Position numbers and translations under genes: made by a program. Below are positions 29,259-54,374 of a stretch of 64,000 bases of DNA, in pieces. The stretch covers positions 186,001 to 250,000 of the forward strand of contig CM074139.1 in NCBI GenBank assembly GCA_037178625.1, in the 5' to 3' direction. Position 1 is the stretch's first letter, and the number at the start of each line of letters is the position of its first letter. The stretch comes from Skeletonema tropicum. Its lineage: Eukaryota; Bacillariophyta; Thalassiosirophyceae; Thalassiosirales; Thalassiosiraceae. The notes under the pieces are model-generated. The model did not search any database, was not told the DNA's origin, and saw nothing but the letters and a program-made list of their open reading frames with translations.

Positions 29259-29326
<68 letters not shown>

Positions 29327-30475: not shown

Positions 30476-30548
30476 TTCCGATACTGGGACTCGAACCCAG
30501 GTATGCCGCGTGAGAGGCGGCTATGATAACCACCTACATCATATCGGA
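30476..30548 (-). tRNA. tRNA-Glu (anticodon CTC), unit 2
   Basis: Identical 73-base cloverleaf to the unit 1 gene, with the same CTTTTATTTT downstream terminator on the minus strand. Confidence 0.95.
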
Positions 30549-30881
30549 GCGCGCCATTTTTCTGGACAAATCGGTCGAGATACAAACTATGAAGTACAGT
30601 TACAGTAACCACTAGTACATGCTCATCATGGCAACAAATTAAAAATTGTCGCAGTCCACACTTACTGTCTCTTGTATTATTTTGTATTGCTAACACTAAT
30701 ATCATGATTTCTATTCGCTTAAATTAAATTTAGATTTCCTATCGAGGTGTGTTTTGCTTTGTTACCTCAGTATTGTTAAGATGGCTCTACTGCAATATAG
30801 TCAAAAAAATACAGATATAGCCACCCTCTTTCAGCAATATCTAGCCAAATAATGCTTACTTCTTCAGCAACCTAGATAATC

Positions 30882-32907: not shown

Positions 32908-33794
32908 GTATTTATGAGCAATCACGCATGTCCCTAGCCCAAGAGTCCGGGCAAATTCACTGCTTCCCCAAGGGAGTAATGATAGATGATAGGCGCCACC
33001 GCATCCGGCCACTATTTGAGAATGGGCCGGGGATGTCCAACTGGCATACCTGGAGTGGGGAGTAGTCCCCTCTCCACACCTCTGCGGTGGTGGTGGAGGA
33101 GGAGTCTCACTCTCACCTGTTGATGGGCACAGATGAGAGTGAGAGAGAGGGGGGGGGGGGGAACACGCCATCACCTAGCACAGGCGACAAGAGGTGTGAC
33201 GGACTTGTTACGGAACAACGAGAAATAGGCCCCTCTTATTACCTGTTCAGATCCAGCTTGCCCCAAAGATGGTTCCTAAATACCATGCCAATTCTATATT
33301 TTATGGGGAAACTCGGACCAAAGGGTGAGGGACAGATCCGAAATGAGGAGTGAAGGCACCCGTCTCGACTGTCCATCAATAGCGAACCCATGCCTACTAC
33401 TCCTGCTCGATGTAGAATAAGGTTTGCATTAGCATACATAAGCGGATGAAGACTAAGATGTGCTTCAGTAGTATGAAGTAGTAGATCTTGCACCTCTTGA
33501 CTAATCAGGCAAAGGCAAAAAGATGTAAAGAATACTGATTCCTAATTCCTACCTACTTGGTAAACTGTGACGTCGACACGAATGAAGTATAATATAATGT
33601 GTATGTTCACATTCACATTGACATCGGTAGTAATAGTAATAGCATTGCTTTCACTTTCATTCTATCAAACCATGAAATTAGACCTTACTCTATCCGTTCA
33701 ATATTCTTCTTTGTATTCGGAAGAGTTGTATTTGTATTCTTCATGCTCAAACTTTTCCTCCGAGATTACATCTTTGCTCATAGGGTTATCATTA

Positions 33795-34268
33795 TCAGTT
33801 ATCAATAACATTCTTTCCGGCTGTGCAAGCTTCGCACTCACTGTTGTGATATTTGCCGCTGTCACATGCGTAGCCTGCACTGGGGTGGGAAGAGTTGAAA
33901 TCCATCCTGAGTTGGCGCACTCGACCAAGGTCTTGGGTTTTCTTAGGCATAGACCTACCACGTGCGTTGGCTTTGGAAGTTAAGGTTAAGAAATTAGAGG
34001 AAGGAGTGTTGTCAGGGCAGTAGTTCATACAGTGCGCAACAAGTCTTACGAACTTTGTCAAGAGAACATATACATTTGTCGTGAGTGTCCTTTGGCCCAG
34101 TGCAGGGACCGCCGAACGAGGTGGCATGTGGCATCGCCCCAGCCGGCAGAGCTGGAGCTGGAAGAGCTGCAAGAACTGGCACCGCCCGCTGAAGAACCGG
34201 CACCGCTGTCGGAGAGTCGAGAAGACGAGAGGCGCCAGCACGAAAACGTGAACGTTCGGAAAGGACAC
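33795..34268 (-). other. Possible Cys-rich protein fragment (unit 2)
   Basis: Same 157-codon frame as 10191-10664, unchanged in sequence. No additional support. Confidence 0.22.
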
Positions 34269-34891
34269 CTATCTTTATTCTAAAAGCACTAGAGGTACGA
34301 CAACTCGAGCGACCAACCTTCATCTGCATACTTATTAAGGAGCTGATATTGTCTCCTCTCCAATAGTTGAAAGGCTACTGAATAGTTACCTTGCAATAAG
34401 GATCGACTGCAACAATGAGTGAGTGAGTGATGATATGTGCTGATATAAGCGCAGATAGAGATTCAGATGGCAACTGTGCTGTGTGTAGTGCTTCCTTCGT
34501 TATCTGAGAATAGCACCACTTGCCAACTCAAAACTTAAAGGTGTTGCAGCTTAACTTGCCAATATCATAACAATACAAGCTAGAAGTAGTCATGTAGGAA
34601 ATGAAGTGATGGTGACCACTGGAATAAGAGCTAGCTGAACGATGAAGATGATGCAATGTGTACAAAAACTTAAAATACTGAATATAATAAATAATACCAT
34701 ACTTATGATTTGCATTGTAGAAGAGAATTGGTTCTTTTATTATTTATGGTACTCCTACACATTATCTAGCTTTGAGTTCCTCCTCTTCCAAAGACTCGGC
34801 CCAAGCACAAAAAATGTACGAGCGTGTTCCTTCTATTATATATATGGTACAACATGTGTTCTGTATATGTACAATACATCAAACAAGCAAT

Positions 34892-35051
34892 TTATTGAAG
34901 GTGTCCAATGATGGGAAGATCGGGATCATATCCAAGAGGCTGGATCTCCTCGTGGACCATAAGTCCAAGGATTCCGAACATGGCAGCACGGCCGTTGTTC
35001 AACTCAATAGCACGCTTCTGAAGCTTGGTCTCTTCATCAAAGTCATCCCAG

Positions 35052-35092
<41 letters not shown>

Positions 35093-35288
35093 ATTTCCAG
35101 TTCCGGGAACATCACGCATGAAGGCAATCTCCAACCAGCCAATGAAGGCGATGATCTGGCCTTGTCCCTCGAAGGGGATGGCATCAGGTCCGATCAAGGC
35201 GGCAACACCGTTGGGGAAGGAGTCGAAGGAGTTTCCAGCGTAGTCAATGTTTCCGGGAAGGTGGATTCCGGCACGGGTGACGATCTGG

Positions 35289-35356
<68 letters not shown>

Positions 35357-35524
35357 TTGGGAGCAGTCTCCAGAGAGCATGCCGAAGGGATCGAAGAATC
35401 CGAGAGGAGGCTGGGCACCGAGCTCATCCTCGAAGGCGTTCAAGGAGGTGGTGGCGGCCTTGTTTTGGGCAGGGGCGAAAGCGGCGGCAGAGCCGATAAG
35501 GGCAGCGATGATGGCAGACTTCAT
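34892..35524 (-). CDS. Fucoxanthin chlorophyll a/c-binding protein (FCP, locus B, unit 2)
   Basis: Identical protein. Locus-B 3' flank. Upstream it retains the inverted-repeat element (35742-36017) and then a locus-A-like flank down to a truncated tRNA. Locus B therefore once carried the same 5' flank as locus A, and unit 1 lost it. Confidence 0.97.
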
Positions 35525-35741
35525 GATTGATATGTTGTTGTGGTCGATTTGATTTTATGAGCAGGCAGAGTGCATGCATGCGCAGAGCTTTTTTGATCTT
35601 GATTCTGCAAATCCAAAATCTTGAAATCTTGTGCTTCAAGTGGGTGCGTATTTTTAATTACAGCACGTTTAAAGCCTTTTCCTGTGTCACATTATTTGTA
35701 GAAAAAATGAAGGCAGGGTCATTAGTCATTATGTACCTATA
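35525..35741 (-). promoter_or_regulatory. FCP upstream region (unit 2, locus B)
   Basis: Same conserved block. It carries a few extra bases (TATGTACCTATA) just before the inverted-repeat element, giving the fullest view of that element's left junction. Confidence 0.5.
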
Positions 35742-36506: not shown

Positions 36507-36547
36507 TTCCGATACTGGGACTCGAACCCAGGTATGCCGCGTGAGAG
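36507..36547 (-). pseudogene. Truncated tRNA-Glu fused to 5S spacer
   Basis: Only the 3' part of the tRNA remains: discriminator, 3' acceptor strand, T arm and the 3' half of the anticodon arm. At about 36546 it passes directly into 5S spacer (GTGAATCTCTG). The 5' acceptor strand, D arm and A box are gone. The junction has a 2-base overlap (AG), consistent with end joining. Confidence 0.92.
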
Positions 36548-36827
36548 TGAATCTCTGTCTCTGTGTAGTCAGTCCTCTCGTTGAGCTGAGGATGACGAGT
36601 AATACATATATATATACATCATAGAGTGATGTATATGTATCTTCTACCTCCGTCTTGGCACCTTGGGTCAAAGATGGCGAGTTTAGTCGAGGGCGAAGCA
36701 GTCGATATCCTCAAGGGAATTAAATAGAAGAAGTGAACGCAGTTTCAGCGCAAAACAGCAGAGCAACAAAGTAAGAAGTCGATAAAAAAATATGCAGTTT
36801 ATAGTGTTTGTATGGTCCCGCTGCGAC

Positions 36828-36945
36828 AGGAACGACCATACCACAGTGACAGCACCGCTTCCCGTCTGCTCAGCGAAGTTAAGCACTGTCGGGCCAGGTT
36901 AGTACTACGGTGGGGGACCACGTTGGAATCCCTGGTGTTGTTCTT
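36828..36945 (+). rRNA. 5S rRNA, altered terminator
   Basis: The gene is consensus, but the terminator TTTT reads TTCT. The next TTTT lies eight bases further on. Confidence 0.95.
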
Positions 36946-37706
36946 CTGCTCCTTTTGCCATTCATTTTGGCCCCTACTTACTCTGTCTACAATACGAAAC
37001 ATTATTGCACTTATTTACTACCCGCCTTTGTCCTGTTTCTTTTGCTCGGCCTTCGCTCTTGCAGGTTTGGTGGCCGAATTTTGAGAAGTCGTGATTAAGA
37101 TAAGAAGCTGGCTGCGTTGTATATATTGTATGTCTCATCGTCCGTCTATCTTCAGTCATCCAGACGTACATATATGAAAGATGTCAAGAGTTCAACCTGC
37201 TGATCCTCGTTTGGCTCCATCTTCATGAGAAGCGTTATCCCCTCTCAGCTATGTCTGACATGTCGTAGATCGAAGTTGAAGCCTTCCACACGTCTACTGG
37301 TCCACTGCTGGCGCTGCTGGCGCTGCTGAGCCGAGGCCGAGTGCAATGCTTCCCACGAAGGGTTCAATCTGCTGAGACTATAATAGGATTGGCTCCAGCT
37401 CGATTTCGATTGGAATCCATTCATAGTGAATCTCTGTCTCTGTGTAGTCAGTCCTCTCGCTGAGCTGAGGATGACGAGTAATACATATATATATACATCA
37501 TAGAGTGATGTATATGTATCTTCTACCTCCGTCTTGGCACCTTGGGTCAAAGATGGCGAGTTTAGTCGAGGGCGAAGCAGTCGATATCCTCAAGGGAATT
37601 AAATAGAAGAAGTGAACGCAGTTTCAGCGCAAAACAGCAGAGCAACAAAGTAAGAAGTCGATAAAAAAATATGCAGTTTATAGTGTTTGTATGGTCCCGC
37701 TGCGAC

Positions 37707-37824
37707 AGGAACGACCATACCACAGTGACAGCACCGCTTCCCGTCTGCTCAGCGAGGTTAAGCACTGTCGGGCCAGGTTAGTACAACGGTGGGGGACCAC
37801 GTTGGAATCCCTGGTGTTGTTCTT
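37707..37824 (+). rRNA. 5S rRNA, two substitutions
   Basis: Carries GCGAGGTTAAG (consensus GCGAAGTTAAG) and GTACAACGG (consensus GTACTACGG). The first change is shared with the two genes that received the TTAA element. Confidence 0.95.
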
Positions 37825-38585
37825 TTGCTCCTTTTGCCATTCATTTTGGCCCCTACTTACTCTGTCTACAATACGAAACATTATTGCACTTATTTACTAC
37901 CCGCCTTTGTCCTGTTTCTTTTGCTCGGCCTTCGCTCTTGCAGGTTTGGTGGCCGAATTTTGAGAAGTCGTGATTAAGATAAGAAGCTGGCTGCGTTGTA
38001 TATATTGTATGTCTCATCGTCCGTCTATCTTCAGTCATCCAGACGTACATATATGAAAGATGTCAAGAGTTCAACCTGCTGATCCTCGTTTGGCTCCATC
38101 TTCATGAGAAGCGTTATCCCCTCTCAGCTATGTCTGACATGTCGTAGATCGAAGTTGAAGCCTTCCACACGTCTACTGGTCCACTGCTGGCGCTGCTGGC
38201 GCTGCTGAGCCGAGGCCGAGTGCAATGCTTCCCACGAAGGGTTCAATCTGCTGAGACTATAATAGGATTGGCTCCAGCTCGATTTCGATTGGAATCCATT
38301 CATAGTGAATCTCTGTCTCTGTGTAGTCAGTCCTCTCGTTGAGCTGAGGATGACGAGTAATACATATATATATACATCATAGAGTGATGTATATGTATCT
38401 TCTACCTCCGTCTTGGCACCTTGGGTCAAAGATGGCGAGTTTAGTCGAGGGCGAAGCAGTCGATATCCTCAAGGGAATTAAATAGAAGAAGTGAACGCAG
38501 TTTCAGCGCAAAACAGCAGAGCAACAAAGTAAGAAGTCGATAAAAAAATATGCAGTTTATAGTGTTTGTATGGTCCCGCTGCGAC

Positions 38586-38703
38586 AGGAACGACCATACC
38601 ACAGTGACAGCACCGCTTCCCGTCTGCTCAGCGAAGTTAAGCACTGTCGGGCCAGGTTAGTACTACGGTGGGGGACCACGTTGGAATCCCTGGTGTTGTT
38701 CTT
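38586..38703 (+). rRNA. 5S rRNA, altered terminator
   Basis: Consensus gene body with the same TTTT to TTCT terminator change as 36828. Confidence 0.95.
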
Positions 38704-39464
38704 CTGCTCCTTTTGCCATTCATTTTGGCCCCTACTTACTCTGTCTACAATACGAAACATTATTGCACTTATTTACTACCCGCCTTTGTCCTGTTTCTTT
38801 TGCTCGGCCTTCGCTCTTGCAGGTTTGGTGGCCGAATTTTGAGAAGTCGTGATTAAGATAAGAAGCTGGCTGCGTTGTATATATTGTATGTCTCATCGTC
38901 CGTCTATCTTCAGTCATCCAGACGTACATATATGAAAGATGTCAAGAGTTCAACCTGCTGATCCTCGTTTGGCTCCATCTTCATGAGAAGCGTTATCCCC
39001 TCTCAGCTATGTCTGACATGTCGTAGATCGAAGTTGAAGCCTTCCACACGTCTACTGGTCCACTGCTGGCGCTGCTGGCGCTGCTGAGCCGAGGCCGAGT
39101 GCAATGCTTCCCACGAAGGGTTCAATCTGCTGAGACTATAATAGGATTGGCTCCAGCTCGATTTCGATTGGAATCCATTCATAGTGAATCTCTGTCTCTG
39201 TGTAGTCAGTCCTCTCGTTGAGCTGAGGATGACGAGTAATACATATATATATACATCATAGAGTGATGTATATGTATCTTCTACCTCCGTCTTGGCACCT
39301 TGGGTCAAAGATGGCGAGTTTAGTCGAGGGCGAAGCAGTCGATATCCTCAAGGGAATTAAATAGAAGAAGTGAACGCAGTTTCAGCGCAAAACAGCAGAG
39401 CAACAAAGTAAGAAGTCGATAAAAAAATATGCAGTTTATAGTGTTTGTATGGTCCCGCTGCGAC

Positions 39465-39582
39465 AGGAACGACCATACCACAGTGACAGCACCGCTTCCC
39501 GTCTGCTCAGCGAAGTTAAGCACTGTCGGGCCAGGTTAGTACTACGGTGGGGGACCACGTTGGAATCCCTGGTGTTGTTCTT
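39465..39582 (+). rRNA. 5S rRNA
   Basis: Consensus gene, A variant in the downstream spacer. Confidence 0.97.
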
Positions 39583-40389
39583 TTGCTCCTTTTGCCATTC
39601 ATTTTGGCCCCTACTTACTCTGTCTACAATACGAAACATTATTGCACTTATTTACTACCCGCCTTTGTCCTGTTTCTTTTGCTCGGCCTTCGCTCTTGCA
39701 GGTTTGGTGGCCGAATTATGAGAAGTCGTGATTAAGATAAGAAGCTGGCTGCGTTGTATATATTGTATGTCTCATCGTCCGTCTATCTTCAGTCATCCAG
39801 ACGTACATATATGAAAGATGTCAAGAGTTCAACCTGCTGATCCTCGTTTGGCTCCATCTTCATGAGAAGCGTTATCCCCTCTCAGCTATGTCTGACATGT
39901 CGTAGATCGAAGTTGAAGCCTTCCACACGTCTACTGGTCCACTGCTGGCGCTGCTGAGCCGAGGCCGAGTGCAATGCTTCCCACGAAGGGTTCAATCTGC
40001 TGAGACTATAATAGGATTGGCTCCAGCTCGATTTCGATTGGAATCCATTCATAGTGAATCTCTGTCTCTGTGTAGTCAGTCCTCTCGCTGAGCTGAGGAT
40101 GACGAGTAATACATATATATATACATCATAGAGTGATGTATATGTATCTTCTACCTCCGTCTTGGCACCTTGGGTCAAAGATGGCGAGTTTAGTCGAGGG
40201 CGAAGCAGTCGATATCCTCAAGGGAATTAAATAGAAGAAGTGAACGCAGTTTCAGCGCAAAACAGCAGAGCAACAAAGTAAGAAGTCGATAAAAAAATAT
40301 GCAGTTTATAGTGTTTGTATGGTCCCGCTGCGACAGGAACGACCATACCACAGTGACAGCACCGCTTCCCGTCTGCTCAGCGAGGTTAA

Positions 40390-40868
40390 GGTTACGGGGT
40401 CGCTTGTTTTTAAGGGCTAGTACGCTCTAAAATAATGTGAGGGAGCCCTTACAGGTACTTAGTCTTTTTTGTAGTGGTACAGTATGAGGCGTTTCACATC
40501 ACCACCGATCAACCATCAAACCATGGCACAAAGTTAGCGCTCTCCACCCCATACGGCACGTGTGTACTACGCCAAAATCACTGGGGTCGGTGAAATAACT
40601 ACGACGGTAAATCATTACTAATACCATTAGCCGCCATTATTCGCTGGAATTCTATCACTGGAACCTTTCGAATTTTTTAATTAATACACCCACCGTCGTC
40701 ATTGCATCCGACGGTACATGCACCACTCGACACAACAGCATCCTCCCCTACACATCGTTGCGGCGCTCTTACTACACAAAAATTGTCACGGGCGCTTCAC
40801 CTATCAATATACCATCGACCGCCGTCGGAATTGTCTCACTGGTCACCGCATAATTTGAAAACAACAGC
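40390..40868 (+). repeat. Left terminal inverted repeat, copy 1
   Basis: 479 bases. Near the end an inner inverted repeat AAGGGCT...AGCCCTT can form a hairpin. A CCGTCG motif recurs at least five times in both orientations and is a candidate protein-binding site. It ends 41 bases before the start codon of the plus-strand gene, so it must hold that gene's promoter. Confidence 0.9.
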
Positions 40869-40909
40869 GCTCCTATTGTAATTTGAAAATAATAATATTT
40901 ATTCACAGC

Positions 40910-41719
40910 ATGAGTGAGGAGGGCGAGGAAAGACAACCAAAGAGGAGTAAGGGGGATTCAATTCAAGAGAAGAAAGAGGATAAAATGAAGGCCGAGGATA
41001 TGTGGACACACATTGAGAACAATAAAAACTTGCTCAATCATATCAAGGCCAACAAAGATGAATGGAAACAGGAACACTTCGCATATATTCGTGAATTTTG
41101 TTCCCATGTGCAGATGCACAAGAAAGACTTCCCCCTTGTTATGGGAGATAAATACCCTGATTATGAGAGCCCCCCGGCAACTGAGGGGAGTGGAATTGAG
41201 CTTACAATGGGATACATCACAAAGGTTGCGCGGAGGGAGGATACATCTTCCATCACCGATGAACCGATCTTACAGGTTGTGGAACGAGAGACCAAGTATC
41301 GAGGAACTGTTGAAATGAAAGGAGGGAAAGGTGGATCTTCTACTGTCACTCAAGTACAATTTACTCATCTCACGTTGTGCGACGGTGACGGCAACATTAT
41401 TGTCGGACGTGTTGTTACTCACCTCACACACGAAGCAAGGAAGCTGGAAAGGGGGGACATAATCAAGTTACCAGTGTTCACAGAGCTGACACACAGAATT
41501 GGCAACAGCAACCCAATGCCAGCTTTATTCATTGTCGAGTTTCGAAAGATTGGCTATGCTATAATCCCAGAGAATGTGAAGCAACAGCAACTATCGTGCG
41601 ACCTGTCGAACTCATCCGACAAGTCTAATGATACTCCATCTGCGAATGATAATGATACTGCGATCGGATTCTTTAACCTCTTCGTACTTCTGGGCAAGGT
41701 ACATTGCGGAGCTGTATGA
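40910..41719 (+). CDS. Element protein A, unknown (copy 1)
   Basis: 269 residues from the ATG at 40910 (MSEEGEER). The frame is open nine codons further up, but that stretch looks like AT-rich leader and includes a TTCACAG splice-acceptor-like sequence. The N-terminus is charged and lysine-rich with a basic KRSK patch; the middle is helical. From about residue 90 to 225 it is strand-rich, with VTQVQFTHLTLCDGDGN and PALFIVEFRKIGYAII, and could be an OB-type nucleic-acid-binding fold; I rate that low. The last 55 codons overlap the convergent gene 41554-42114. No transposase catalytic motif is visible. Confidence 0.7.
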   Translation: MSEEGEERQPKRSKGDSIQEKKEDKMKAEDMWTHIENNKNLLNHIKANKDEWKQEHFAYIREFCSHVQMHKKDFPLVMGDKYPDYESPPATEGSGIELTMGYITKVARREDTSSITDEPILQVVERETKYRGTVEMKGGKGGSSTVTQVQFTHLTLCDGDGNIIVGRVVTHLTHEARKLERGDIIKLPVFTELTHRIGNSNPMPALFIVEFRKIGYAIIPENVKQQQLSCDLSNSSDKSNDTPSANDNDTAIGFFNLFVLLGKVHCGAV

Positions 41720-42114
41720 CCAGGTTGTCGACAAATGCCACACTTCCTGACTGTAGTTGACTTCTTCTTCTTTACTGAACTCTTCGCTGACTCACCCAAT
41801 GGCACTTGGGCTCTGCGATAGCTCGTCTTCTTTGCAGCTTCCTTGCCCATTACTGACGCTCTCATCAAAGATGTTCTCATGCGTTGTTTCTTTGCATCTT
41901 CACCATTCAGTCTCTTGCGATCTTCTTCACACCTCTTCGCCTGCTTCAGCATGCTTTCAATCTCAGCCGAAGTCAATTCTATACCAAGAAGTTCCGACAA
42001 TTGCCGATGTGTCTTCTCCTTATTGCCCTTGCCAGTGACACAGACTGCCAACTCAGCCATTGCCTTCCATGCATCAGTCTGGTCCAAATTAAGTCGCTTT
42101 CCTTCAGAGTACAT
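41554..42114 (-). CDS. Element protein C with CCHC zinc knuckle (copy 1)
   Basis: 186 residues. Basic and helical through about residue 120, then a zinc knuckle C125-GI-C128-RQPG-H133-TAPQ-C138 (C-x2-C-x4-H-x4-C), a nucleic-acid-binding motif common in retroelement Gag and at the C-terminus of some DNA transposases. Its ATG lies two bases after the stop of gene B (TAG-CA-ATG), so the two may be made from one transcript by reinitiation, or may be halves of one protein joined by splicing or frameshift. The 3' end overlaps protein A on the other strand by 166 bases. Confidence 0.65.
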   Translation of the reverse strand: MYSEGKRLNLDQTDAWKAMAELAVCVTGKGNKEKTHRQLSELLGIELTSAEIESMLKQAKRCEEDRKRLNGEDAKKQRMRTSLMRASVMGKEAAKKTSYRRAQVPLGESAKSSVKKKKSTTVRKCGICRQPGHTAPQCTLPRSTKRLKNPIAVSLSFADGVSLDLSDEFDRSHDSCCCFTFSGIIA

Positions 42115-42116
42115 TG

Positions 42117-42788
42117 CTATTGTCCTTCTGCCTCTTTGGCTGAACCCTCAATCATGTCGATACCCGATTCAAATTCTACTTCAACATGAGCTTCCTCTTC
42201 AACATAAGCTTCCTGCGTTTCATCTTCTCGCACGCTAGTATCTGGTGGCTGCGTTCCTTCATCTTCTGGCCTCTCGCCGACTGTTTCATGCGTTTCATCT
42301 TCCTGTGCACCAGAGTCTGGTTGATGCGTTCCTTCGTCACGAGCTTCAGTCCTCTCCTGCTGCGTTTGGGTTTCCACCTGTGCAAGCTCATCCAGTGCAT
42401 CGTTCACTCTCTTCAAATGGTCTGCTGCTTCTGCACAAGTTTTGAAAAAATTTCTTTCAGGATTAATATTTATACGTTTACCCCCACCTCCTGCCTTGAA
42501 CCGTTGCTCGTTCGGAAGCTGTATTGCTTTGGGGGAGTTCTTCGGGATATAGTAGGCAGTGTTGCGAAACATATTTTTCCAGAGAAATATTTCCCCTTTA
42601 TTAACCACCTTCAGTGCATTGATGACCATGACGTCTGTCAACGAACTATGCACCCCACAGTGGACATGACGGTCGCGTATTTCTTTTGGTGTCAACCACA
42701 GCTTCCTTTTGTCATCCGGAAGGCACTGAGTGAGAAATAACATGCTTGCTTTCACTTCACGGTTAATTGGGGATGTCGTTACTGACAT
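42117..42788 (-). CDS. Element protein B, unknown (copy 1)
   Basis: 223 residues. Residues about 30-90 (LTPKEIRDR...YYIPKN) look like a small winged-helix or similar DNA-binding fold, by pattern only. The C-terminal third is very acidic with two diverged copies of an 18-residue repeat (DEGTHQPD...EDETHE and DEGTQPPD...EDETQE). It starts 10 bases inside the right inverted repeat and is followed by gene C with TAG-CA-ATG spacing. No homolog is recognised. Confidence 0.65.
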   Translation of the reverse strand: MSVTTSPINREVKASMLFLTQCLPDDKRKLWLTPKEIRDRHVHCGVHSSLTDVMVINALKVVNKGEIFLWKNMFRNTAYYIPKNSPKAIQLPNEQRFKAGGGGKRININPERNFFKTCAEAADHLKRVNDALDELAQVETQTQQERTEARDEGTHQPDSGAQEDETHETVGERPEDEGTQPPDTSVREDETQEAYVEEEAHVEVEFESGIDMIEGSAKEAEGQ

Positions 42789-42798
42789 TTTTTATGTT

Positions 42799-43277
42799 GC
42801 TGTTGTTTTCAAATTATGCGGTGGCCAGTGAGACAATTCCGACGGCGGTCGATGGTATATTGATAGGTGAAGCGCCCGTGACAATTTTTGTGTAGTAAGA
42901 GCGCCGCAACGATGTGTAGGGGAGGATGCTGTTGTGTCGAGTGGTGCATGTACCGTCGGATGCAATGACGACGGTGGGTGTATTAATTAAAAAATTCGAA
43001 AGGTTCCAGTGATAGAATTCCAGCGAATAATGGCGGCTAATGGTATTAGTAATGATTTACCGTCGTAGTTATTTCACCGACCCCAGTGATTTTGGCGTAG
43101 TACACACGTGCCGTATGGGGTGGAGAGCGCTAACTTTGTGCCATGGTTTGATGGTTGATCGGTGGTGATGTGAAACGCCTCATACTGTACCACTACAAAA
43201 AAGACTAAGTACCTGTAAGGGCTCCCTCACATTATTTTAGAGCGTACTAGCCCTTAAAAACAAGCGACCCCGTAACC
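42799..43277 (-). repeat. Right terminal inverted repeat, copy 1
   Basis: Inverted copy of 40390-40868 with one visible mismatch (C/T near the inner end). It ends 10 bases before the start of the minus-strand gene, giving it the same upstream sequence as the plus-strand gene. Confidence 0.9.
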
Positions 43278-44096
43278 TTAAGCACTGTCGGGCCAGGTTA
43301 GTACTACGGTGGGGGACCACGTTGGAATCCCGGGTGTTGTTCTTTTGCTCCTTTTGCCATTCATTTTGGCCCCTACTTACTCTGTCTACAATACGAAACA
43401 TTATTGCACTTATTTACTACCCGCCTTTGTCCTGTTTCTTTTGCTCGGCCTTCGCTCTTGCAGGTTTGGTGGCCGAATTTTGAGAAGTCGTGATTAAGAT
43501 AAGAAGCTGGCTGCGTTGTATATATTGTATGTCTCATCGTCCGTCTATCTTCAGTCATCCAGACGTACATATATGAAAGATGTCAAGAGTTCAACCTGCT
43601 GATCCTCGTTTGGCTCCATCTTCATGAGAAGCGTTATCCCCTCTCAGCTATGTCTGACATGTCGTAGATCGAAGTTGAAGCCTTCCACACGTCTACTGGT
43701 CCACTGCTGGCGCTGCTGAGCCGAGGCCGAGTGCAATGCTTCCCACGAAGGGTTCAATCTGCTGAGACTATAATAGGATTGGCTCCAGCTCGATTTCGAT
43801 TGGAATCCATTCATAGTGAATCTCTGTCTCTGTGTAGTCAGTCCTCTCGCTGAGCTGAGGATGACGAGTAATACATATATATATACATCATAGAGTGATG
43901 TATATGTATCTTCTACCTCCGTCTTGGCACCTTGGGTCAAAGATGGCGAGTTTAGTCGAGGGCGAAGCAGTCGATATCCTCAAGGGAATTAAATAGAAGA
44001 AGTGAACGCAGTTTCAGCGCAAAACAGCAGAGCAACAAAGTAAGAAGTCGATAAAAAAATATGCAGTTTATAGTGTTTGTATGGTCCCGCTGCGAC

Positions 44097-44214
44097 AGGA
44101 ACGACCATACCACAGTGACAGCACCGCTTCCCGTCTGCTCAGCGAAGTTAAGCACTGTCGGGCCAGGTTAGTACTACGGTGGGGGACCACGTTGGAATCC
44201 CTGGTGTTGTTCTT
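44097..44214 (+). rRNA. 5S rRNA
   Basis: Consensus copy, first intact gene after element copy 1. Confidence 0.97.
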
Positions 44215-44966
44215 TTGCTCCTTTTGCCATTCATTTTGGCCCCTACTTACTCTGTCTACAATACGAAACATTATTGCACTTATTTACTACCCGCCTTTGT
44301 CCTGTTTCTTTTGCTCGGCCTTCGCTCTTGCAGGTTTGGTGGCCGAATTTTGAGAAGTCGTGATTAAGATAAGAAGCTGGCTGCGTTGTATATATTGTAT
44401 GTCTCATCGTCCGTCTATCTTCAGTCATCCAGACGTACATATATGAAAGATGTCAAGAGTTCAACCTGCTGATCCTCGTTTGGCTCCATCTTCATGAGAA
44501 GCGTTATCCCCTCTCAGCTATGTCTGACATGTCGTAGATCGAAGTTGAAGCCTTCCACACGTCTACTGGTCCACTGCTGGCGCTGCTGAGCCGAGGCCGA
44601 GTGCAATGCTTCCCACGAAGGGTTCAATCTGCTGAGACTATAATAGGATTGGCTCCAGCTCGATTTCGATTGGAATCCATTCATAGTGAATCTCTGTCTC
44701 TGTGTAGTCAGTCCTCTCGCTGAGCTGAGGATGACGAGTAATACATATATATATACATCATAGAGTGATGTATATGTATCTTCTACCTCCGTCTTGGCAC
44801 CTTGGGTCAAAGATGGCGAGTTTAGTCGAGGGCGAAGCAGTCGATATCCTCAAGGGAATTAAATAGAAGAAGTGAACGCAGTTTCAGCGCAAAACAGCAG
44901 AGCAACAAAGTAAGAAGTCGATAAAAAAATATGCAGTTTATAGTGTTTGTATGGTCCCGCTGCGAC

Positions 44967-45084: not shown

Positions 45085-45836
45085 TTGCTCCTTTTGCCAT
45101 TCATTTTGGCCCCTACTTACTCTGTCTACAATACGAAACATTATTGCACTTATTTACTACCCGCCTTTGTCCTGTTTCTTTTGCTCGGCCTTCGCTCTTG
45201 CAGGTTTGGTGGCCGAATTTTGAGAAGTCGTGATTAAGATAAGAAGCTGGCTGCGTTGTATATATTGTATGTCTCATCGTCCGTCTATCTTCAGTCATCC
45301 AGACGTACATATATGAAAGATGTCAAGAGTTCAACCTGCTGATCCTCGTTTGGCTCCATCTTCATGAGAAGCGTTATCCCCTCTCAGCTATGTCTGACAT
45401 GTCGTAGATCGAAGTTGAAGCCTTCCACACGTCTACTGGTCCACTGCTGGCGCTGCTGAGCCGAGGCCGAGTGCAATGCTTCCCACGAAGGGTTCAATCT
45501 GCTGAGACTATAATAGGATTGGCTCCAGCTCGATTTCGATTGGAATCCATTCATAGTGAATCTCTGTCTCTGTGTAGTCAGTCCTCTCGCTGAGCTGAGG
45601 ATGACGAGTAATACATATATATATACATCATAGAGTGATGTATATGTATCTTCTACCTCCGTCTTGGCACCTTGGGTCAAAGATGGCGAGTTTAGTCGAG
45701 GGCGAAGCAGTCGATATCCTCAAGGGAATTAAATAGAAGAAGTGAACGCAGTTTCAGCGCAAAACAGCAGAGCAACAAAGTAAGAAGTCGATAAAAAAAT
45801 ATGCAGTTTATAGTGTTTGTATGGTCCCGCTGCGAC

Positions 45837-45954
45837 AGGAACGACCATACCACAGTGACAGCACCGCTTCCCGTCTGCTCAGCGAAGTTAAGCACTGTCG
45901 GGCCAGGTTAGTACTACGGTGGGGGACCACGTTGGAATCCCTGGTGTTGTTCTT
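45837..45954 (+). rRNA. 5S rRNA
   Basis: Consensus copy. Confidence 0.97.
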
Positions 45955-46706
45955 TTGCTCCTTTTGCCATTCATTTTGGCCCCTACTTACTCTGTCTACA
46001 ATACGAAACATTATTGCACTTATTTACTACCCGCCTTTGTCCTGTTTCTTTTGCTCGGCCTTCGCTCTTGCAGGTTTGGTGGCCGAATTTTGAGAAGTCG
46101 TGATTAAGATAAGAAGCTGGCTGCGTTGTATATATTGTATGTCTCATCGTCCGTCTATCTTCAGTCATCCAGACGTACATATATGAAAGATGTCAAGAGT
46201 TCAACCTGCTGATCCTCGTTTGGCTCCATCTTCATGAGAAGCGTTATCCCCTCTCAGCTATGTCTGACATGTCGTAGATCGAAGTTGAAGCCTTCCACAC
46301 GTCTACTGGTCCACTGCTGGCGCTGCTGAGCCGAGGCCGAGTGCAATGCTTCCCACGAAGGGTTCAATCTGCTGAGACTATAATAGGATTGGCTCCAGCT
46401 CGATTTCGATTGGAATCCATTCATAGTGAATCTCTGTCTCTGTGTAGTCAGTCCTCTCGCTGAGCTGAGGATGACGAGTAATACATATATATATACATCA
46501 TAGAGTGATGTATATGTATCTTCTACCTCCGTCTTGGCACCTTGGGTCAAAGATGGCGAGTTTAGTCGAGGGCGAAGCAGTCGATATCCTCAAGGGAATT
46601 AAATAGAAGAAGTGAACGCAGTTTCAGCGCAAAACAGCAGAGCAACAAAGTAAGAAGTCGATAAAAAAATATGCAGTTTATAGTGTTTGTATGGTCCCGC
46701 TGCGAC

Positions 46707-46824
46707 AGGAACGACCATACCACAGTGACAGCACCGCTTCCCGTCTGCTCAGCGAAGTTAAGCACTGTCTGGCCAGGTTAGTACTACGGTGGGGGACCAC
46801 GTTGGAATCCCTGGTGTTGTTCTT
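46707..46824 (+). rRNA. 5S rRNA, G64T variant
   Basis: CACTGTCGGGCC reads CACTGTCTGGCC (base 46770), between box A and box C. Downstream spacer is the A variant. Confidence 0.95.
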
Positions 46825-47576
46825 TTGCTCCTTTTGCCATTCATTTTGGCCCCTACTTACTCTGTCTACAATACGAAACATTATTGCACTTATTTACTAC
46901 CCGCCTTTGTCCTGTTTCTTTTGCTCGGCCTTCGCTCTTGCAGGTTTGGTGGCCGAATTATGAGAAGTCGTGATTAAGATAAGAAGCTGGCTGCGTTGTA
47001 TATATTGTATGTCTCATCGTCCGTCTATCTTCAGTCATCCAGACGTACATATATGAAAGATGTCAAGAGTTCAACCTGCTGATCCTCGTTTGGCTCCATC
47101 TTCATGAGAAGCGTTATCCCCTCTCAGCTATGTCTGACATGTCGTAGATCGAAGTTGAAGCCTTCCACACGTCTACTGGTCCACTGCTGGCGCTGCTGAG
47201 CCGAGGCCGAGTGCAATGCTTCCCACGAAGGGTTCAATCTGCTGAGACTATAATAGGATTGGCTCCAGCTCGATTTCGATTGGAATCCATTCATAGTGAA
47301 TCTCTGTCTCTGTGTAGTCAGTCCTCTCGCTGAGCTGAGGATGACGAGTAATACATATATATATACATCATAGAGTGATGTATATGTATCTTCTACCTCC
47401 GTCTTGGCACCTTGGGTCAAAGATGGCGAGTTTAGTCGAGGGCGAAGCAGTCGATATCCTCAAGGGAATTAAATAGAAGAAGTGAACGCAGTTTCAGCGC
47501 AAAACAGCAGAGCAACAAAGTAAGAAGTCGATAAAAAAATATGCAGTTTATAGTGTTTGTATGGTCCCGCTGCGAC

Positions 47577-47694
47577 AGGAACGACCATACCACAGTGACA
47601 GCACCGCTTCCCGTCTGCTCAGCGAAGTTAAGCACTGTCGGGCCAGGTTAGTACTACGGTGGGGGACCACGTTGGAATCCCTGGTGTTGTTCTT
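47577..47694 (+). rRNA. 5S rRNA
   Basis: Consensus gene, A variant in the downstream spacer. Confidence 0.97.
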
Positions 47695-48446
47695 TTGCTC
47701 CTTTTGCCATTCATTTTGGCCCCTACTTACTCTGTCTACAATACGAAACATTATTGCACTTATTTACTACCCGCCTTTGTCCTGTTTCTTTTGCTCGGCC
47801 TTCGCTCTTGCAGGTTTGGTGGCCGAATTATGAGAAGTCGTGATTAAGATAAGAAGCTGGCTGCGTTGTATATATTGTATGTCTCATCGTCCGTCTATCT
47901 TCAGTCATCCAGACGTACATATATGAAAGATGTCAAGAGTTCAACCTGCTGATCCTCGTTTGGCTCCATCTTCATGAGAAGCGTTATCCCCTCTCAGCTA
48001 TGTCTGACATGTCGTAGATCGAAGTTGAAGCCTTCCACACGTCTACTGGTCCACTGCTGGCGCTGCTGAGCCGAGGCCGAGTGCAATGCTTCCCACGAAG
48101 GGTTCAATCTGCTGAGACTATAATAGGATTGGCTCCAGCTCGATTTCGATTGGAATCCATTCATAGTGAATCTCTGTCTCTGTGTAGTCAGTCCTCTCGC
48201 TGAGCTGAGGATGACGAGTAATACATATATATATACATCATAGAGTGATGTATATGTATCTTCTACCTCCGTCTTGGCACCTTGGGTCAAAGATGGCGAG
48301 TTTAGTCGAGGGCGAAGCAGTCGATATCCTCAAGGGAATTAAATAGAAGAAGTGAACGCAGTTTCAGCGCAAAACAGCAGAGCAACAAAGTAAGAAGTCG
48401 ATAAAAAAATATGCAGTTTATAGTGTTTGTATGGTCCCGCTGCGAC

Positions 48447-48564
48447 AGGAACGACCATACCACAGTGACAGCACCGCTTCCCGTCTGCTCAGCGAAGTTA
48501 AGCACTGTCTGGCCAGGTTAGTACTACGGTGGGGGACCACGTTGGAATCCCTGGTGTTGTTCTT
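48447..48564 (+). rRNA. 5S rRNA, G64T variant
   Basis: Same substitution as 46707 (base 48510), pointing to duplication of a two-unit block. Confidence 0.95.
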
Positions 48565-49893
48565 TTGCTCCTTTTGCCATTCATTTTGGCCCCTACTTAC
48601 TCTGTCTACAATACGAAACATTATTGCACTTATTTACTACCCGCCTTTGTCCTGTTTCTTTTGCTCGGCCTTCGCTCTTGCAGGTTTGGTGGCCGAATTA
48701 TGAGAAGTCGTGATTAAGATAAGAAGCTGGCTGCGTTGTATATATTGTATGTCTCATCGTCCGTCTATCTTCAGTCATCCAGACGTACATATATGAAAGA
48801 TGTCAAGAGTTCAACCTGCTGATCCTCGTTTGGCTCCATCTTCATGAGAAGCGTTATCCCCTCTCAGCTATGTCTGACATGTCGTAGATCGAAGTTGAAG
48901 CCTTCCACACGTCTACTGGTCCACTGCTGGCGCTGCTGAGCCGAGGCCGAGTGCAATGCTTCCCACGAAGGGTTCAATCTGCTGAGACTATAATAGGATT
49001 GGCTCCAGCTCGATTTCGATTGGAATCCATTCATAGTGAATCTCTGTCTCTGTGTAGTCAGTCCTCTCGCTGAGCTGAGGATGACGAGTAATACATATAT
49101 ATATACATCATAGAGTGATGTATATGTATCTTCTACCTCCGTCTTGGCACCTTGGGTCAAAGATGGCGAGTTTAGTCGAGGGCGAAGCAGTCGATATCCT
49201 CAAGGGAATTAAATAGAAGAAGTGAACGCAGTTTCAGCGCAAAACAGCAGAGCAACAAAGTAAGAAGTCGATAAAAAAATATGCAGTTTATAGTGTTTGT
49301 ATGGTCCCGCTGCGACAGGAACGACCATACCACAGTGACAGCACCGCTTCCCGTCTGCTCAGCGAGGTTAAGGTTACGGGGTCGCTTGTTTTTAAAAGGG
49401 CTAGTACGCTCTAAAATAATGTGAGGGAGCCCTTACAGGTACTTAGTCTTTTTTGTAGTGGTACAGTATGAGGCGTTTCACATCACCACCGATCAACCAT
49501 CAAACCATGGCACAAAGTTAGCGCTCTCCACCCCATACGGCACGTGTGTACTACGCCAAAATCACTGGGGTCGGTGAAATAACTACGACGGTAAATCATT
49601 ACTAATACCATTAGCCGCCGTTATTCGCTGGAATTCTATCACTGGAACCTTTCGAATTTTTTAATTAATACACCCACCGTCGTCATTGCATCCGACGGTA
49701 CATGCACCACTCGACACAACAGCATCCTCCCCTACACATCGTTGCGGCGCTCTTACTACACAAAAATTGTCACGGGCGCTTCACCTATCAATATACCATC
49801 GACCGCCGTCGGAATTGTCTCACTGGCCACCGCATAATTTGAAAACAACAGCGCTCCTATTGTAATTTGAAAATAATAATATTTATTCACAGC

Positions 49894-50703
49894 ATGAGTG
49901 AGGAGGGCGAGGAAAGACAACCAAAGAGGAGTAAGGGGGATTCAATTCAAGAGAAGAAAGAGGATAAAATGAAGGCCGAGGATATGTGGACACACATTGA
50001 GAACAATAAAAACTTGCTCAATCATATCAAGGCCAACAAAGATGAATGGAAACAGGAACACTTCGCATATATTCGTGAATTTTGTTCCCATGTGCAGATG
50101 CACAAGAAAGACTTCCCCCTTGTTATGGGAGATAAATACCCTGATTATGAGAGCCCCCCGGCAACTGAGGGGAGTGGAATTGAGCTTACAATGGGATACA
50201 TCACAAAGGTTGCGCGGAGGGAGGATACATCTTCCATCACCGATGAACCGATCTTACAGGTTGTGGAACGAGAGACCAAGTATCGAGGAACTGTTGAAAT
50301 GAAAGGAGGGAAAGGTGGATCTTCTACTGTCACTCAAGTACAATTTACTCATCTCACGTTGTGCGACGGTGACGGCAACATTATTGTCGGACGTGTTGTT
50401 ACTCACCTCACACACGAAGCAAGGAAGCTGGAAAGGGGGGACATAATCAAGTTACCAGTGTTCACAGAGCTGACACACAGAATTGGCAACAGCAACCCAA
50501 TGCCAGCTTTATTCATTGTCGAGTTTCGAAAGATTGGCTATGCTATAATCCCAGAGAATGTGAAGCAACAGCAACTATCGTGCGACCTGTCGAACTCATC
50601 CGACAAGTCTAATGATACTCCATCTGCGAATGATAATGATACTGCGATCGGATTCTTTAACCTCTTCGTACTTCTGGGCAAGGTACATTGCGGAGCTGTA
50701 TGA
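49894..50703 (+). CDS. Element protein A, unknown (copy 2)
   Basis: 269 residues from MSEEGEER, identical to the product at 40910. It overlaps the convergent gene C. Confidence 0.7.
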   Translation: MSEEGEERQPKRSKGDSIQEKKEDKMKAEDMWTHIENNKNLLNHIKANKDEWKQEHFAYIREFCSHVQMHKKDFPLVMGDKYPDYESPPATEGSGIELTMGYITKVARREDTSSITDEPILQVVERETKYRGTVEMKGGKGGSSTVTQVQFTHLTLCDGDGNIIVGRVVTHLTHEARKLERGDIIKLPVFTELTHRIGNSNPMPALFIVEFRKIGYAIIPENVKQQQLSCDLSNSSDKSNDTPSANDNDTAIGFFNLFVLLGKVHCGAV

Positions 50704-51098
50704 CCAGGTTGTCGACAAATGCCACACTTCCTGACTGTAGTTGACTTCTTCTTCTTTACTGAACTCTTCGCTGACTCACCCAATGGCACTTGGGCTCTGC
50801 GATAGCTCGTCTTCTTTGCAGCTTCCTTGCCCATTACTGACGCTCTCATCAAAGATGTTCTCATGCGTTGTTTCTTTGCATCTTCACCATTCAGTCTCTT
50901 GCGATCTTCTTCACACCTCTTCGCCTGCTTCAGCATGCTTTCAATCTCAGCCGAAGTCAATTCTATACCAAGAAGTTCCGACAATTGCCGATGTGTCTTC
51001 TCCTTATTGCCCTTGCCAGTGACACAGACTGCCAACTCAGCCATTGCCTTCCATGCATCAGTCTGGTCCAAATTAAGTCGCTTTCCTTCAGAGTACAT
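50538..51098 (-). CDS. Element protein C with CCHC zinc knuckle (copy 2)
   Basis: 186 residues, identical to the product at 41554-42114, zinc knuckle intact. Confidence 0.65.
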   Translation of the reverse strand: MYSEGKRLNLDQTDAWKAMAELAVCVTGKGNKEKTHRQLSELLGIELTSAEIESMLKQAKRCEEDRKRLNGEDAKKQRMRTSLMRASVMGKEAAKKTSYRRAQVPLGESAKSSVKKKKSTTVRKCGICRQPGHTAPQCTLPRSTKRLKNPIAVSLSFADGVSLDLSDEFDRSHDSCCCFTFSGIIA

Positions 51099-51100
51099 TG

Positions 51101-51772
51101 CTATTGTCCTTCTGCCTCTTTGGCTGAACCCTCAATCATGTCGATACCCGATTCAAATTCTACTTCAACATGAGCTTCCTCTTCAACATAAGCTTCCTGC
51201 GTTTCATCTTCTCGCACGCTAGTATCTGGTGGCTGCGTTCCTTCATCTTCTGGCCTCTCGCCGACTGTTTCATGCGTTTCATCTTCCTGTGCACCAGAGT
51301 CTGGTTGATGCGTTCCTTCGTCACGAGCTTCAGTCCTCTCCTGCTGCGTTTGGGTTTCCACCTGTGCAAGCTCATCCAGTGCATCGTTCACTCTCTTCAA
51401 ATGGTCTGCTGCTTCTGCACAAGTTTTGAAAAAATTTCTTTCAGGATTAATATTTATACGTTTACCCCCACCTCCTGCCTTGAACCGTTGCTCGTTCGGA
51501 AGCTGTATTGCTTTGGGGGAGTTCTTCGGGATATAGTAGGCAGTGTTGCGAAACATATTTTTCCAGAGAAATATTTCCCCTTTATTAACCACCTTCAGTG
51601 CATTGATGACCATGACGTCTGTCAACGAACTATGCACCCCACAGTGGACATGACGGTCGCGTATTTCTTTTGGTGTCAACCACAGCTTCCTTTTGTCATC
51701 CGGAAGGCACTGAGTGAGAAATAACATGCTTGCTTTCACTTCACGGTTAATTGGGGATGTCGTTACTGACAT
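51101..51772 (-). CDS. Element protein B, unknown (copy 2)
   Basis: 223 residues, identical to the product at 42117-42788, with the same TAG-CA-ATG link to gene C. Confidence 0.65.
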   Translation of the reverse strand: MSVTTSPINREVKASMLFLTQCLPDDKRKLWLTPKEIRDRHVHCGVHSSLTDVMVINALKVVNKGEIFLWKNMFRNTAYYIPKNSPKAIQLPNEQRFKAGGGGKRININPERNFFKTCAEAADHLKRVNDALDELAQVETQTQQERTEARDEGTHQPDSGAQEDETHETVGERPEDEGTQPPDTSVREDETQEAYVEEEAHVEVEFESGIDMIEGSAKEAEGQ

Positions 51773-53080
51773 TTTTTATGTTGCTGTTGTTTTCAAATTA
51801 TGCGGTGACCAGTGAGACAATTCCGACGGCGGTCGATGATATATTGATAGGTGAAGCGCCCGTGACAATTTTTGTGTAGTAAGAGCGCCGCAACGATGTG
51901 TAGGGGAGGATGCTGTTGTGTCGAGTGGTGCATGTACCGTCGGATGCAATGACGACGGTGGGTGTATTAATTAAAAAATTCGAAAGGTTCCAGTGATAGA
52001 ATTCCAGCGAATAATGGCGGCTAATGGTATTAGTAATGATTTACCGTCGTAGTTATTTCACCGACCCCAGTGATTTTGGCGTAGTACACACGTGCCGTAT
52101 GGGGTGGAGAGCGCTAACTTTGTGCCATGGTTTGATGGTTGATCGGTGGTGATGTGAAACGCCTCATACTGTACCACTACAAAAAAGACTAAGTACCTGT
52201 AAGGGCTCCCTCACATTATTTTAGAGCGTACTAGCCCTTAAAAACAAGCGACCCCGTAACCTTAAGCACTGTCGGGCCAGGTTAGTACTACGGTGGGGGA
52301 CCACGTTGGAATCCCGGGTGTTGTTCTTTTGCTCCTTTTGCCATTCATTTTGGCCCCTACTTACTCTGTCTACAATACGAAACATTATTGCACTTATTTA
52401 CTACCCGCCTTTGTCCTGTTTCTTTTGCTCGGCCTTCGCTCTTGCAGGTTTGGTGGCCGAATTTTGAGAAGTCGTGATTAAGATAAGAAGCTGGCTGCGT
52501 TGTATATATTGTATGTCTCATCGTCCGTCTATCTTCAGTCATCCAGACGTACATATATGAAAGATGTCAAGAGTTCAACCTGCTGATCCTCGTTTGGCTC
52601 CATCTTCATGAGAAGCGTTATCCCCTCTCAGCTATGTCTGACATGTCGTAGATCGAAGTTGAAGCCTTCCACACGTCTACTGGTCCACTGCTGGCGCTGC
52701 TGAGCCGAGGCCGAGTGCAATGCTTCCCACGAAGGGTTCAATCTGCTGAGACTATAATAGGATTGGCTCCAGCTCGATTTCGATTGGAATCCATTCATAG
52801 TGAATCTCTGTCTCTGTGTAGTCAGTCCTCTCGCTGAGCTGAGGATGACGAGTAATACATATATATATACATCATAGAGTGATGTATATGTATCTTCTAC
52901 CTCCGTCTTGGCACCTTGGGTCAAAGATGGCGAGTTTAGTCGAGGGCGAAGCAGTCGATATCCTCAAGGGAATTAAATAGAAGAAGTGAACGCAGTTTCA
53001 GCGCAAAACAGCAGAGCAACAAAGTAAGAAGTCGATAAAAAAATATGCAGTTTATAGTGTTTGTATGGTCCCGCTGCGAC

Positions 53081-53198
53081 AGGAACGACCATACCACAGT
53101 GACAGCACCGCTTCCCGTCTGCTCAGCGAAGTTAAGCACTGTCGGGCCAGGTTAGTACTACGGTGGGGGACCACGTTGGAATCCCTGGTGTTGTTCTT
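53081..53198 (+). rRNA. 5S rRNA (last of unit 2 array)
   Basis: Consensus gene. The spacer after it ends at about 53258, exactly where the unit 1 array ends. It lacks the 98-bp upstream insertion and 1-base deletion seen in the corresponding unit 1 gene. Confidence 0.97.
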
Positions 53199-54357
53199 TT
53201 GCTCCTTTTGCCATTCATTTTGGCCCCTACTTACTCTGTCTACAATACGAAACATTATAAGTAGAGGCAGCAGATGTGCCACTGATGAAGATACGCGATG
53301 GGATTGTAGGGCACTAGTTGGGGATGAGATGGCCCCCCTCACTGCTCAAAATCCAAGCTGCTATCTTGTCCCTACCGATGCCACGACAAACTCTGTCTGA
53401 GTAACAATGGTGGTAAGTAAGTGTGAACGGTGACGGTTTGTACTTATGCTGGTGAATAGTGTCCTCCAAATGCGGACAAGTTGAGTACCGAGTGTTTGTA
53501 TGTTGAAGGAACACATCACATTTTTGAGGCTCACATGTCTCATACCTCTTCCTTCAACGACTGTTTTGTCGTAAGCAAGATTATTCCGTATCGATGATGA
53601 AGAACAATGTTGACAGCAGCCAAACATGGCGATAACTCTGTTCCAAGAATTACAGCAGCCATTGTTGCTATTTGATCACGCTGCGTTGCCGCGTCTTCAA
53701 TTACAAATCAGTGGCGTTAGATTTTCCACGACGGCCATTTATGACGTAATGCAAAATGTGGGAGTAGGAGAAGTTGGAGAGGGAACGAAATGATCTGCGA
53801 GTAAGTGAACGGTATTATATCCTTCCTAGTCCGCCAGGACTTACAACTCACAACCTTTACATCAACATGCTTTCTGCGTCGAAAGGTTCACAGTAAATGA
53901 TTGCATTGACGATGCAATTCAGTAGCTTGAAGAACGCCATCACTGTAAAATCTGAGCAGAAGGAATCAGATGATAATAACTGAAATTTCAAAGTACGTCT
54001 GATTAGCCCTCTAGGTGCGAAATAATGATGATTAACCAACATGTGTGCTGCGACGTCAGTATTGATGCTTCATACTGCCTCCACAGCTGTTTCTCAGATC
54101 GCACCCCAAGCCAGAAGACCCAATTGGTCTCCTGGCCAGGATTGATTCAACCTTATGGTTGTGTTACGTCTTCGATTTCTCGAGTCAATTGAGGACAGAG
54201 CCCATCCTTGGCTGTCCTTTCTCACGATATAATAAGTACTACTTTATGAGCGGTTCAGGAATCAGATGAGTACAGGTATGAATTTCTTTGCAATACATAG
54301 CGTCAGCGGCACTCATTAGATGAAGCTTGACGCCGCAATATTGTACTTTTAGATGCT

Positions 54358-54374
54358 TTAGGGTTAGGGTTAGG
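54358..54374 (+). repeat. Interstitial telomere-like tract (unit 2)
   Basis: Same 17 bases as in unit 1. Confidence 0.8.

What the first reader, a model, noticed from the sequence alone, without database searches (positions are those of the whole stretch)
40386..43281. A TTAA-inserting element with 479-bp inverted repeats placed inside a 5S rRNA gene
The element begins GGTTACGGGG and ends CCCCGTAACC. It is flanked by TTAA that comes from the conserved GTTAAGC of 5S rRNA, and deleting it restores a perfect 118-base gene. Known TTAA families are piggyBac, Kolobok and Sola3, but their hallmark transposases are not visible; the three proteins are a possible OB-type protein, a possible winged-helix/acidic protein and a zinc-knuckle protein. 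The TTAA within box A is common to many eukaryotic 5S genes, so such an element could use the array as a safe harbour, as the piggyBac-family element Pokey does in 28S rDNA of Daphnia. This is my best candidate for an undescribed system.
Basis: partly seen in the sequence, partly recalled or inferred. Interest (0 to 1): 0.85.

Follow-up and report, generated by a model that had tools for sequence, protein, structure and literature searches.

The report
Deleted Kolobok transposon in diatom 5S
A jumping gene of the known Kolobok group, with the core of its enzyme deleted, landed in a 5S ribosomal RNA gene of a diatom; nearly all its relatives in that genome sit elsewhere, so this is not a new 5S-seeking system.

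Summary
Element 40390-43277 (2,888 bp, 479-nt inverted arms, one mismatch) lies between two TTAA inside a 5S gene. A second copy, 49372-52261, came from array duplication.

It is not an undescribed system. Its exact 14-nt end occurs 44 times in this diatom genome; 43 of 44 ends abut TTAA, at about 25 independent sites, one of them in 5S. The two minus-strand ORFs are the N- and C-terminal ends of one DDE transposase whose core is deleted here. Sister copies keep parts of it, and an 815-aa relative shows Pfam PF20700, D/D/E, DxxH and a zinc finger. The plus-strand ORF is a truncated accessory protein: RPA70N-like OB fold plus, in longer copies, a weak match to the P2X7 ballast domain. TTAA, GG...CC ends and the two-protein plan match Kolobok, most like the KolX-bearing Kol0 type (PMC9587614).

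Best reading: a young, internally deleted, non-autonomous Kolobok, moved in trans. The less ordinary part is a KolX-like protein in a diatom: print calls the ballast domain metazoan.

The parts
40335..40389 (+). 5' part of the interrupted 5S rRNA gene (55 nt, ending in TTAA)
   Evidence: flank joining; coordinates read
40386..40389 (.). TTAA target site, left copy
40390..40868 (+). left terminal inverted repeat, 479 nt
40910..41719 (+). truncated KolX-like accessory ORF (269 aa); its first 253 aa match P0040 residues 1-243 at 96%; the ballast-like end is lost by deletion
   Evidence: longer form in L024
41661..41662 (.). internal deletion 1 (about 420 bp present here in L024, L016 and others)
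41554..42114 (-). remnant of the transposase C-terminus (186 aa) with a CCHC-like zinc knuckle; matches P0039 residues 709-814 at 76%
42125..42126 (.). internal deletion 2 (670 bp present here in L024, 877 bp in L021, not the same stretch of the gene); removes the D, D and E of the catalytic core
42117..42788 (-). remnant of the transposase N-terminus (223 aa): winged-helix-like region and acidic linker; matches P0039 residues 1-191 at 51%
42799..43277 (-). right terminal inverted repeat, 479 nt
43278..43281 (.). TTAA target site, right copy
43282..43345 (+). 3' part of the interrupted 5S rRNA gene (64 nt)
   Evidence: flank joining
49372..52261 (+). second copy of the element in another 5S unit, flanked by TTAA; result of array duplication

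Best explanation
It is an internally deleted, non-autonomous DNA transposon of the Kolobok superfamily, of the two-gene kind (transposase plus KolX-like protein), in a diatom. SHOWN: TTAA-flanked copies with related 479-nt arms at about 25 sites; two internal deletions in the window copy relative to sister copies; loss of the catalytic D, D and E from the transposase gene and of the ballast-like end from the accessory gene; a later duplication of the insertion with its piece of the 5S array. INFERRED: a transposase made by another copy cut this element out elsewhere at its ends and pasted it into the TTAA of a 5S gene, duplicating TTAA. No same-family copy with a whole transposase frame was found here, so the source is lost, split by introns, not assembled, or not among the scored candidates. 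The 5S gene was hit because it holds a TTAA and exists in about 190 copies, not because the element seeks it. SPECULATION: the RPA70N-like OB fold of the accessory protein docks host repair proteins or the acidic linker of the transposase.
Against: No reference Kolobok protein was on hand, so no direct alignment or tree. PF20700 is named 'Mutator-like', and the L024 piece is under its cut-off (24.7). The transposase model has no significant Foldseek match and the alignment finds nothing in the PDB by sequence. THAP, usual in Xenopus Kolobok, was not seen (PMC6004289). Ballast support is weak: 5 of 20 relatives at E<=0.001, P0040 below the cut-off.
Confidence: 0.92

Rival explanations
1. A 5S-targeting element that uses the array as a safe harbour, as Dada families do in other small RNA genes.
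For: One insertion in 5S where about 0.02 is expected for 25 uniform TTAA insertions (184 exact 5S cores; about 232,650 TTAA by extrapolation).
Against: About 24 of 25 independent sites are outside 5S; of 192 flexible 5S-core matches the two interrupted window units are one event; length changes at the 5S TTAA (5 in the listed places) are no clear excess over a control site (4) and one control had 0.
Confidence: 0.04
2. A TTAA element of another superfamily (piggyBac, or a separate MULE-like group), not Kolobok.
For: piggyBac also duplicates TTAA, and a few piggyBac families carry a protein like the KolX C-terminus (PMC9587614). The Pfam family is named Mutator-like.
Against: GG...CC ends, given in PMC9587614 as the contrast to piggyBac; DxxH and the zinc finger before the last E; only PF20700 and zf-CCHC reach E<=0.001 in 20 relatives, no piggyBac-type domain.
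Confidence: 0.04
3. An undescribed three-protein transposition system, as first proposed.
For: The three window ORFs are open and have no significant Pfam match by themselves.
Against: Sister copies join the two minus ORFs into one frame and restore parts of a DDE core at the same junctions; the 815-aa relative aligns with both in order.
Confidence: 0.01

Closest known systems
Kolobok superfamily, Kol0 type (transposase + KolX; Kolobok-1_XT) as described in PMC9587614
   Same: TTAA duplication, 5'-RR...YY-3' ends, DDE with DxxH and a zinc finger before the last E, second protein with a P2X7-ballast-like C-terminus
   Different: 479-nt arms, a CCHC-like set after the first D (print gives this for KolobokP, E, D, 5 and a few solitary families), winged-helix-like N-terminus with no THAP seen, diatom host, window copy internally deleted
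KolobokP (PMC9587614)
   Same: Kolobok; two convergent genes; CCHC after the first D; long terminal repeats near 450-480 nt
   Different: [quoted passage not shown] here the repeats are inverted and the second protein is KolX-like
T2-MITE / XKol elements of Xenopus (PMC6004289, passages)
   Same: TTAA sites, RR ends, non-autonomous copies moved by Kolobok transposases
   Different: Xenopus transposases usually carry THAP; T2-MITEs are short, this one is 2.9 kb with gene remnants
Dada (PMC3706591, passages)
   Same: DDE element found inside multicopy small RNA genes
   Different: Dada is site-specific with 6-7 bp duplications; this family is dispersed at TTAA

Membership tests
Kolobok superfamily | TTAA 4-bp target site duplication | tested here: met
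   43 of 44 ends abut TTAA; all 14 places with both exact ends have TTAA on both sides
Kolobok superfamily | termini 5'-RR ... YY-3' | tested here: met
   GG...CC; also in the C3 family
Kolobok superfamily | DDE transposase with C/DxxH between second D and E | tested here: met
   in relatives and, by pieces, in sister copies; deleted in the window copy itself
Kolobok superfamily | zinc finger between DxxH and the last E | tested here: met
   H622, H626, C629, C635 in 20 of 20 rows
Kolobok superfamily | groups with reference Kolobok transposases in a tree | not testable with these tools
   no Repbase or named Kolobok proteins on hand
Kolobok superfamily | THAP domain (usual, not universal, per PMC6004289) | tested here: not met
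   no THAP at E<=0.001 in 20 relatives; described as usual, so not treated as defining
Kol0 lineage | second protein KolX with P2X7-ballast-like C-terminus | tested here: inconclusive
   PF20478 just over cut-off in L024 and L009 forms, 5 of 20 relatives at E<=0.001, PDB profile finds only P2X7, E 0.044-0.22; six Cys invariant against seven described
Kol0 lineage | no CCHC set after the first D (Kol0 is not among the lineages listed as having it) | tested here: not met
   C437 16 of 20, C440 17 of 20, H471 and C475 20 of 20; so likeness to Kol0 is claimed, membership is not
piggyBac | TTAA duplication | tested here: met
piggyBac | piggyBac-type transposase domain | tested here: not met
   only PF20700 and zf-CCHC match at E<=0.001 in 20 relatives
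Dada | 6-7 bp duplication and insertion at one site of an RNA gene | tested here: not met
   4-bp TTAA, about 24 of 25 sites outside 5S
MuDR/MULE | long target duplication (8-11 bp, recalled) | tested here: not met
   flanks repeat only TTAA

The most novel reading that the evidence does not exclude
Diatoms carry a Kolobok lineage of their own whose second protein joins an RPA70N-like OB fold to a KolX/P2X7-type ballast domain, with a transposase that also bears the CCHC set. The ballast domain, described in print as a metazoan invention, would then be an older transposon domain, spread among eukaryotes by Kolobok and captured by P2X7 in vertebrates.
Probability: 0.5. Interest if true: 0.5.

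Novelty: new member of a known kind. Interest (0 to 1): 0.33.

Why it matters
It shows that this is not a new transposition system, and how internal deletions can make one transposon look like an unrelated three-gene element. The useful by-product is the KolX-like protein in a diatom. Rump et al. 2020 (PMC7016195, passages seen) did not detect the ballast domain in fungi, plants, bacteria or one choanoflagellate and called it a metazoan invention; Kojima and Bao 2022 (PMC9587614, sections and passages seen) report the Kol0/KolX lineage from animals. If the weak homology is confirmed, the domain is far older and its part in transposition can be studied by comparison.

Tried and rejected
Pfam on the window's own three ORFs: nothing significant. 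PDB sequence search with the plus-strand ORF: one weak hit, E 0.086, not pursued. PDB profile search with the transposase alignment: nothing. Foldseek with the transposase model: nothing at E<=0.001; only the second look ranked DDE recombinases first. For the accessory model, P2X7 is not among the 50 rows shown by either program, so the ballast claim rests on sequence alone.

5S excision-scar test: if elements left the 5S TTAA often, length changes should gather there. In the listed places (about 100 each, of 192, 202 and 199 matches) I count 5 length changes at the TTAA, 4 at one control site and 0 at another. Several read TACATA at a TA, which I recall as a Tc1/mariner-type scar. This gives no support for Kolobok excision from 5S.

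An autonomous copy was sought with P0039 in the own genome: 53 matches; the longest in same-family copies covers about 300 of 815 residues (C6), and the longest of all, 453 residues at 31%, is the distant C17 relative, whose 559-aa frame spans the D, D and E. Literature listings: 'KolX' 1 paper, 'P2X7, ballast domain, transposon' the same 1, 'Kolobok, diatom' 3, 'Kolobok, 5S rRNA' 6, 'TTAA, transposon, Thalassiosira' 1, a five-term 5S and transposon search 24 with 15 listed, four Kolobok/TTAA terms 4. From those listings none describes this element; most of these papers I saw only as listings, and Repbase was not on hand.
Full report
What is there. The window is C13:186001-250000 of genome G000 (78.4 Mb, 125 contigs). 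I read it as a diatom from a chlorophyll-binding protein of fucoxanthin type in the window (Pfam Chloroa_b-bind; 'fucoxanthin type' is recalled) and from Skeletonema and Thalassiosira relatives of its transposases. The window holds a 5S array: Rfam finds 21 uninterrupted 5S genes. At 40386-43281 a 5S gene is split by a 2,888-bp element, GGTTACGGGG...CCCCGTAACC, between two TTAA. Its arms are 479 nt with one mismatch. Joining the flanks gives a 119-nt 5S gene with two substitutions relative to the sequence shared by 14 of the 21.

Two copies, one event. A second copy lies at 49372-52261. Its 300-nt flanks are identical to the first's, and the array segment around it is a duplicate (36546-44274 vs 45555-53258, 99.4%). 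Over 3,094 aligned columns with flanks the two copies differ by 4 mismatches and one 2-nt gap.

The family is dispersed. The 479-nt arm finds 41 places (40 of 94 candidates scored, so a lower bound). In 26 fetched stretches, 41 arm matches fall into two groups plus one outlier: 18 differ from the window's left arm by one mismatch, 6 more are at 97.8-99.8%, 16 are at 89-92%, and one is at 71%. The exact 14-nt end occurs 44 times, 22 on each strand. I read the flanks of all 44: 43 abut TTAA directly; in L009 one extra A intervenes, while its twin L025 has TTAA (the script prints 45 ends, one C16 end being read twice). The ends make 30 places, 14 with two exact ends and 16 with one. Collapsing places with 100% identical flanks (window pair; L009/L025; L019/L020/L021; L028/L029) leaves 25; L011 and L026 share a 93% flank, so 24 is possible, and the four ends on C6 and C11 read had only short flanks. 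Only the window's site is in 5S. With 184 exact 5S cores and about 232,650 TTAA by extrapolation from the fetched stretches, uniform choice expects about 0.02 insertions in 5S for 25. One is mildly unexpected, but it is a single event, noticed because of where it lies.

The three ORFs. By themselves they match nothing significant in Pfam. L024 (C4:553582-557563, 3,982 bp) has the same ends plus about 420 bp at window position 41661 and 670 bp at 42125/42126. There the two minus-strand ORFs are one 621-aa frame and the plus-strand ORF becomes 383 aa stop to stop. L019-L021 on C6 keep another part, a 480-aa frame that includes the first catalytic D. PF20700 ('Mutator-like transposase') is over its cut-off in these three copies (27.6 vs 26.5 bits) and in one further place on C17 (29.8), and under it in L024 (24.7) and another C17 place (25.7). 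The 815-aa relative P0039 matches PF20700 at 54.3 bits, and 15 of 20 relatives match. The window's 223-aa ORF matches P0039 residues 1-191 (51%), its 186-aa ORF residues 709-814 (76%). The core between them, with D, D and E, is gone.

A second family with the same plan. On C3 a distant relative (transposase 34%; accessory 40%) lies between TTAA-GGCGGTTATGATGC and its inverted copy-TTAA (L051:947-4641). Its accessory ORF is on one strand and the transposase ORFs converge on the other. On C17 a third (L052) pairs ballast-like and transposase ORFs likewise; its ends were not found with my simple scan.

Comparison with print. PMC9587614 (abstract, passages, sections 3, 9, 10 and 12) describes Kolobok as TTAA-duplicating, with RR/YY ends, DDE plus C/DxxH, a zinc finger before the last E in almost all lineages and, in Kol0, a second protein, KolX, similar to the P2X7 ballast. 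It names diatoms (Fragilariopsis cylindrus) among hosts; PMC7466962 lists Kolobok in Cyclotella cryptica (one passage). The features I could test are met, except that no THAP was seen, which PMC6004289 calls usual (passages). I file it as Kolobok on that basis. Its place within the superfamily was not tested, and Kol0 membership is not claimed: the CCHC set is given in print for other lineages, and the ballast match is weak.

How it works, most likely. A Kolobok transposase made by another copy cut this deleted element from elsewhere and pasted it into the TTAA of a 5S gene (inferred). The near-identity of many arms points to recent movement. No same-family copy with a whole transposase in one frame was found (capped candidates), so the source is missing, lost, intron-split, unassembled or unscored. 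The array then duplicated the interrupted unit (shown).

Verdict. A sound observation with a largely ordinary answer. What remains new is the KolX-like, possibly ballast-bearing accessory protein in diatoms, suggestive rather than proven here.

Noticed in passing
window 12156-12278; G000 C2:5212907, C10:1370827, C10:1373286, C10:1375734: Some 5S genes carry 4-bp or 2-bp insertions that read TACATA or TATA where the norm has one TA, at two different TA sites. I recall TACATA as a Tc1/mariner-type excision scar; this hints that TA-inserting elements visited 5S genes.
   Followed up: partly
G000 C6:3954634-3954667: One 5S core reads GTTAAGCTTAAGC, a 6-bp gain at the TTAA: either slippage of TTAAGC or a scar TTAA-G-C-TTAA of a G...C-ended TTAA element; not separable here.
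   Followed up: no
L011 left flank and L026 right flank: Two copies from different arm subgroups (99.8% and 92% to the window arm) share a 300-nt flank at 93% identity up to the same TTAA: an old duplicated insertion, or two insertions in copies of one repeat.
   Followed up: no
L017:2312-2944 (-): Where a one-ended copy on C8 loses family similarity, an ORF continues into a DDE_1 domain (PF03184, E 6e-8): a fusion with a different transposon.
   Followed up: partly
L018:2115-7550: Behind 260 bp of family sequence a one-ended copy on C7 runs into three tandem units of about 2.07 kb, each with ORFs starting alike (277 and 264 aa, the last cut short); the 277-aa ORF has no Pfam match.
   Followed up: no
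window 1-12125 vs 23605-35729; 20091-27380 vs 53066-60359: Large near-identical duplications (99.7%) carry a chlorophyll-binding gene and AP2-domain ORFs between 5S blocks, so the whole region is being copied in blocks.
   Followed up: no
L016:6062-6904 (-): A Ulp1-type peptidase ORF (PF02902, E 3e-17) lies about 5 kb from the end of a one-ended copy on C10; whether it belongs to another mobile element was not tested.
   Followed up: no
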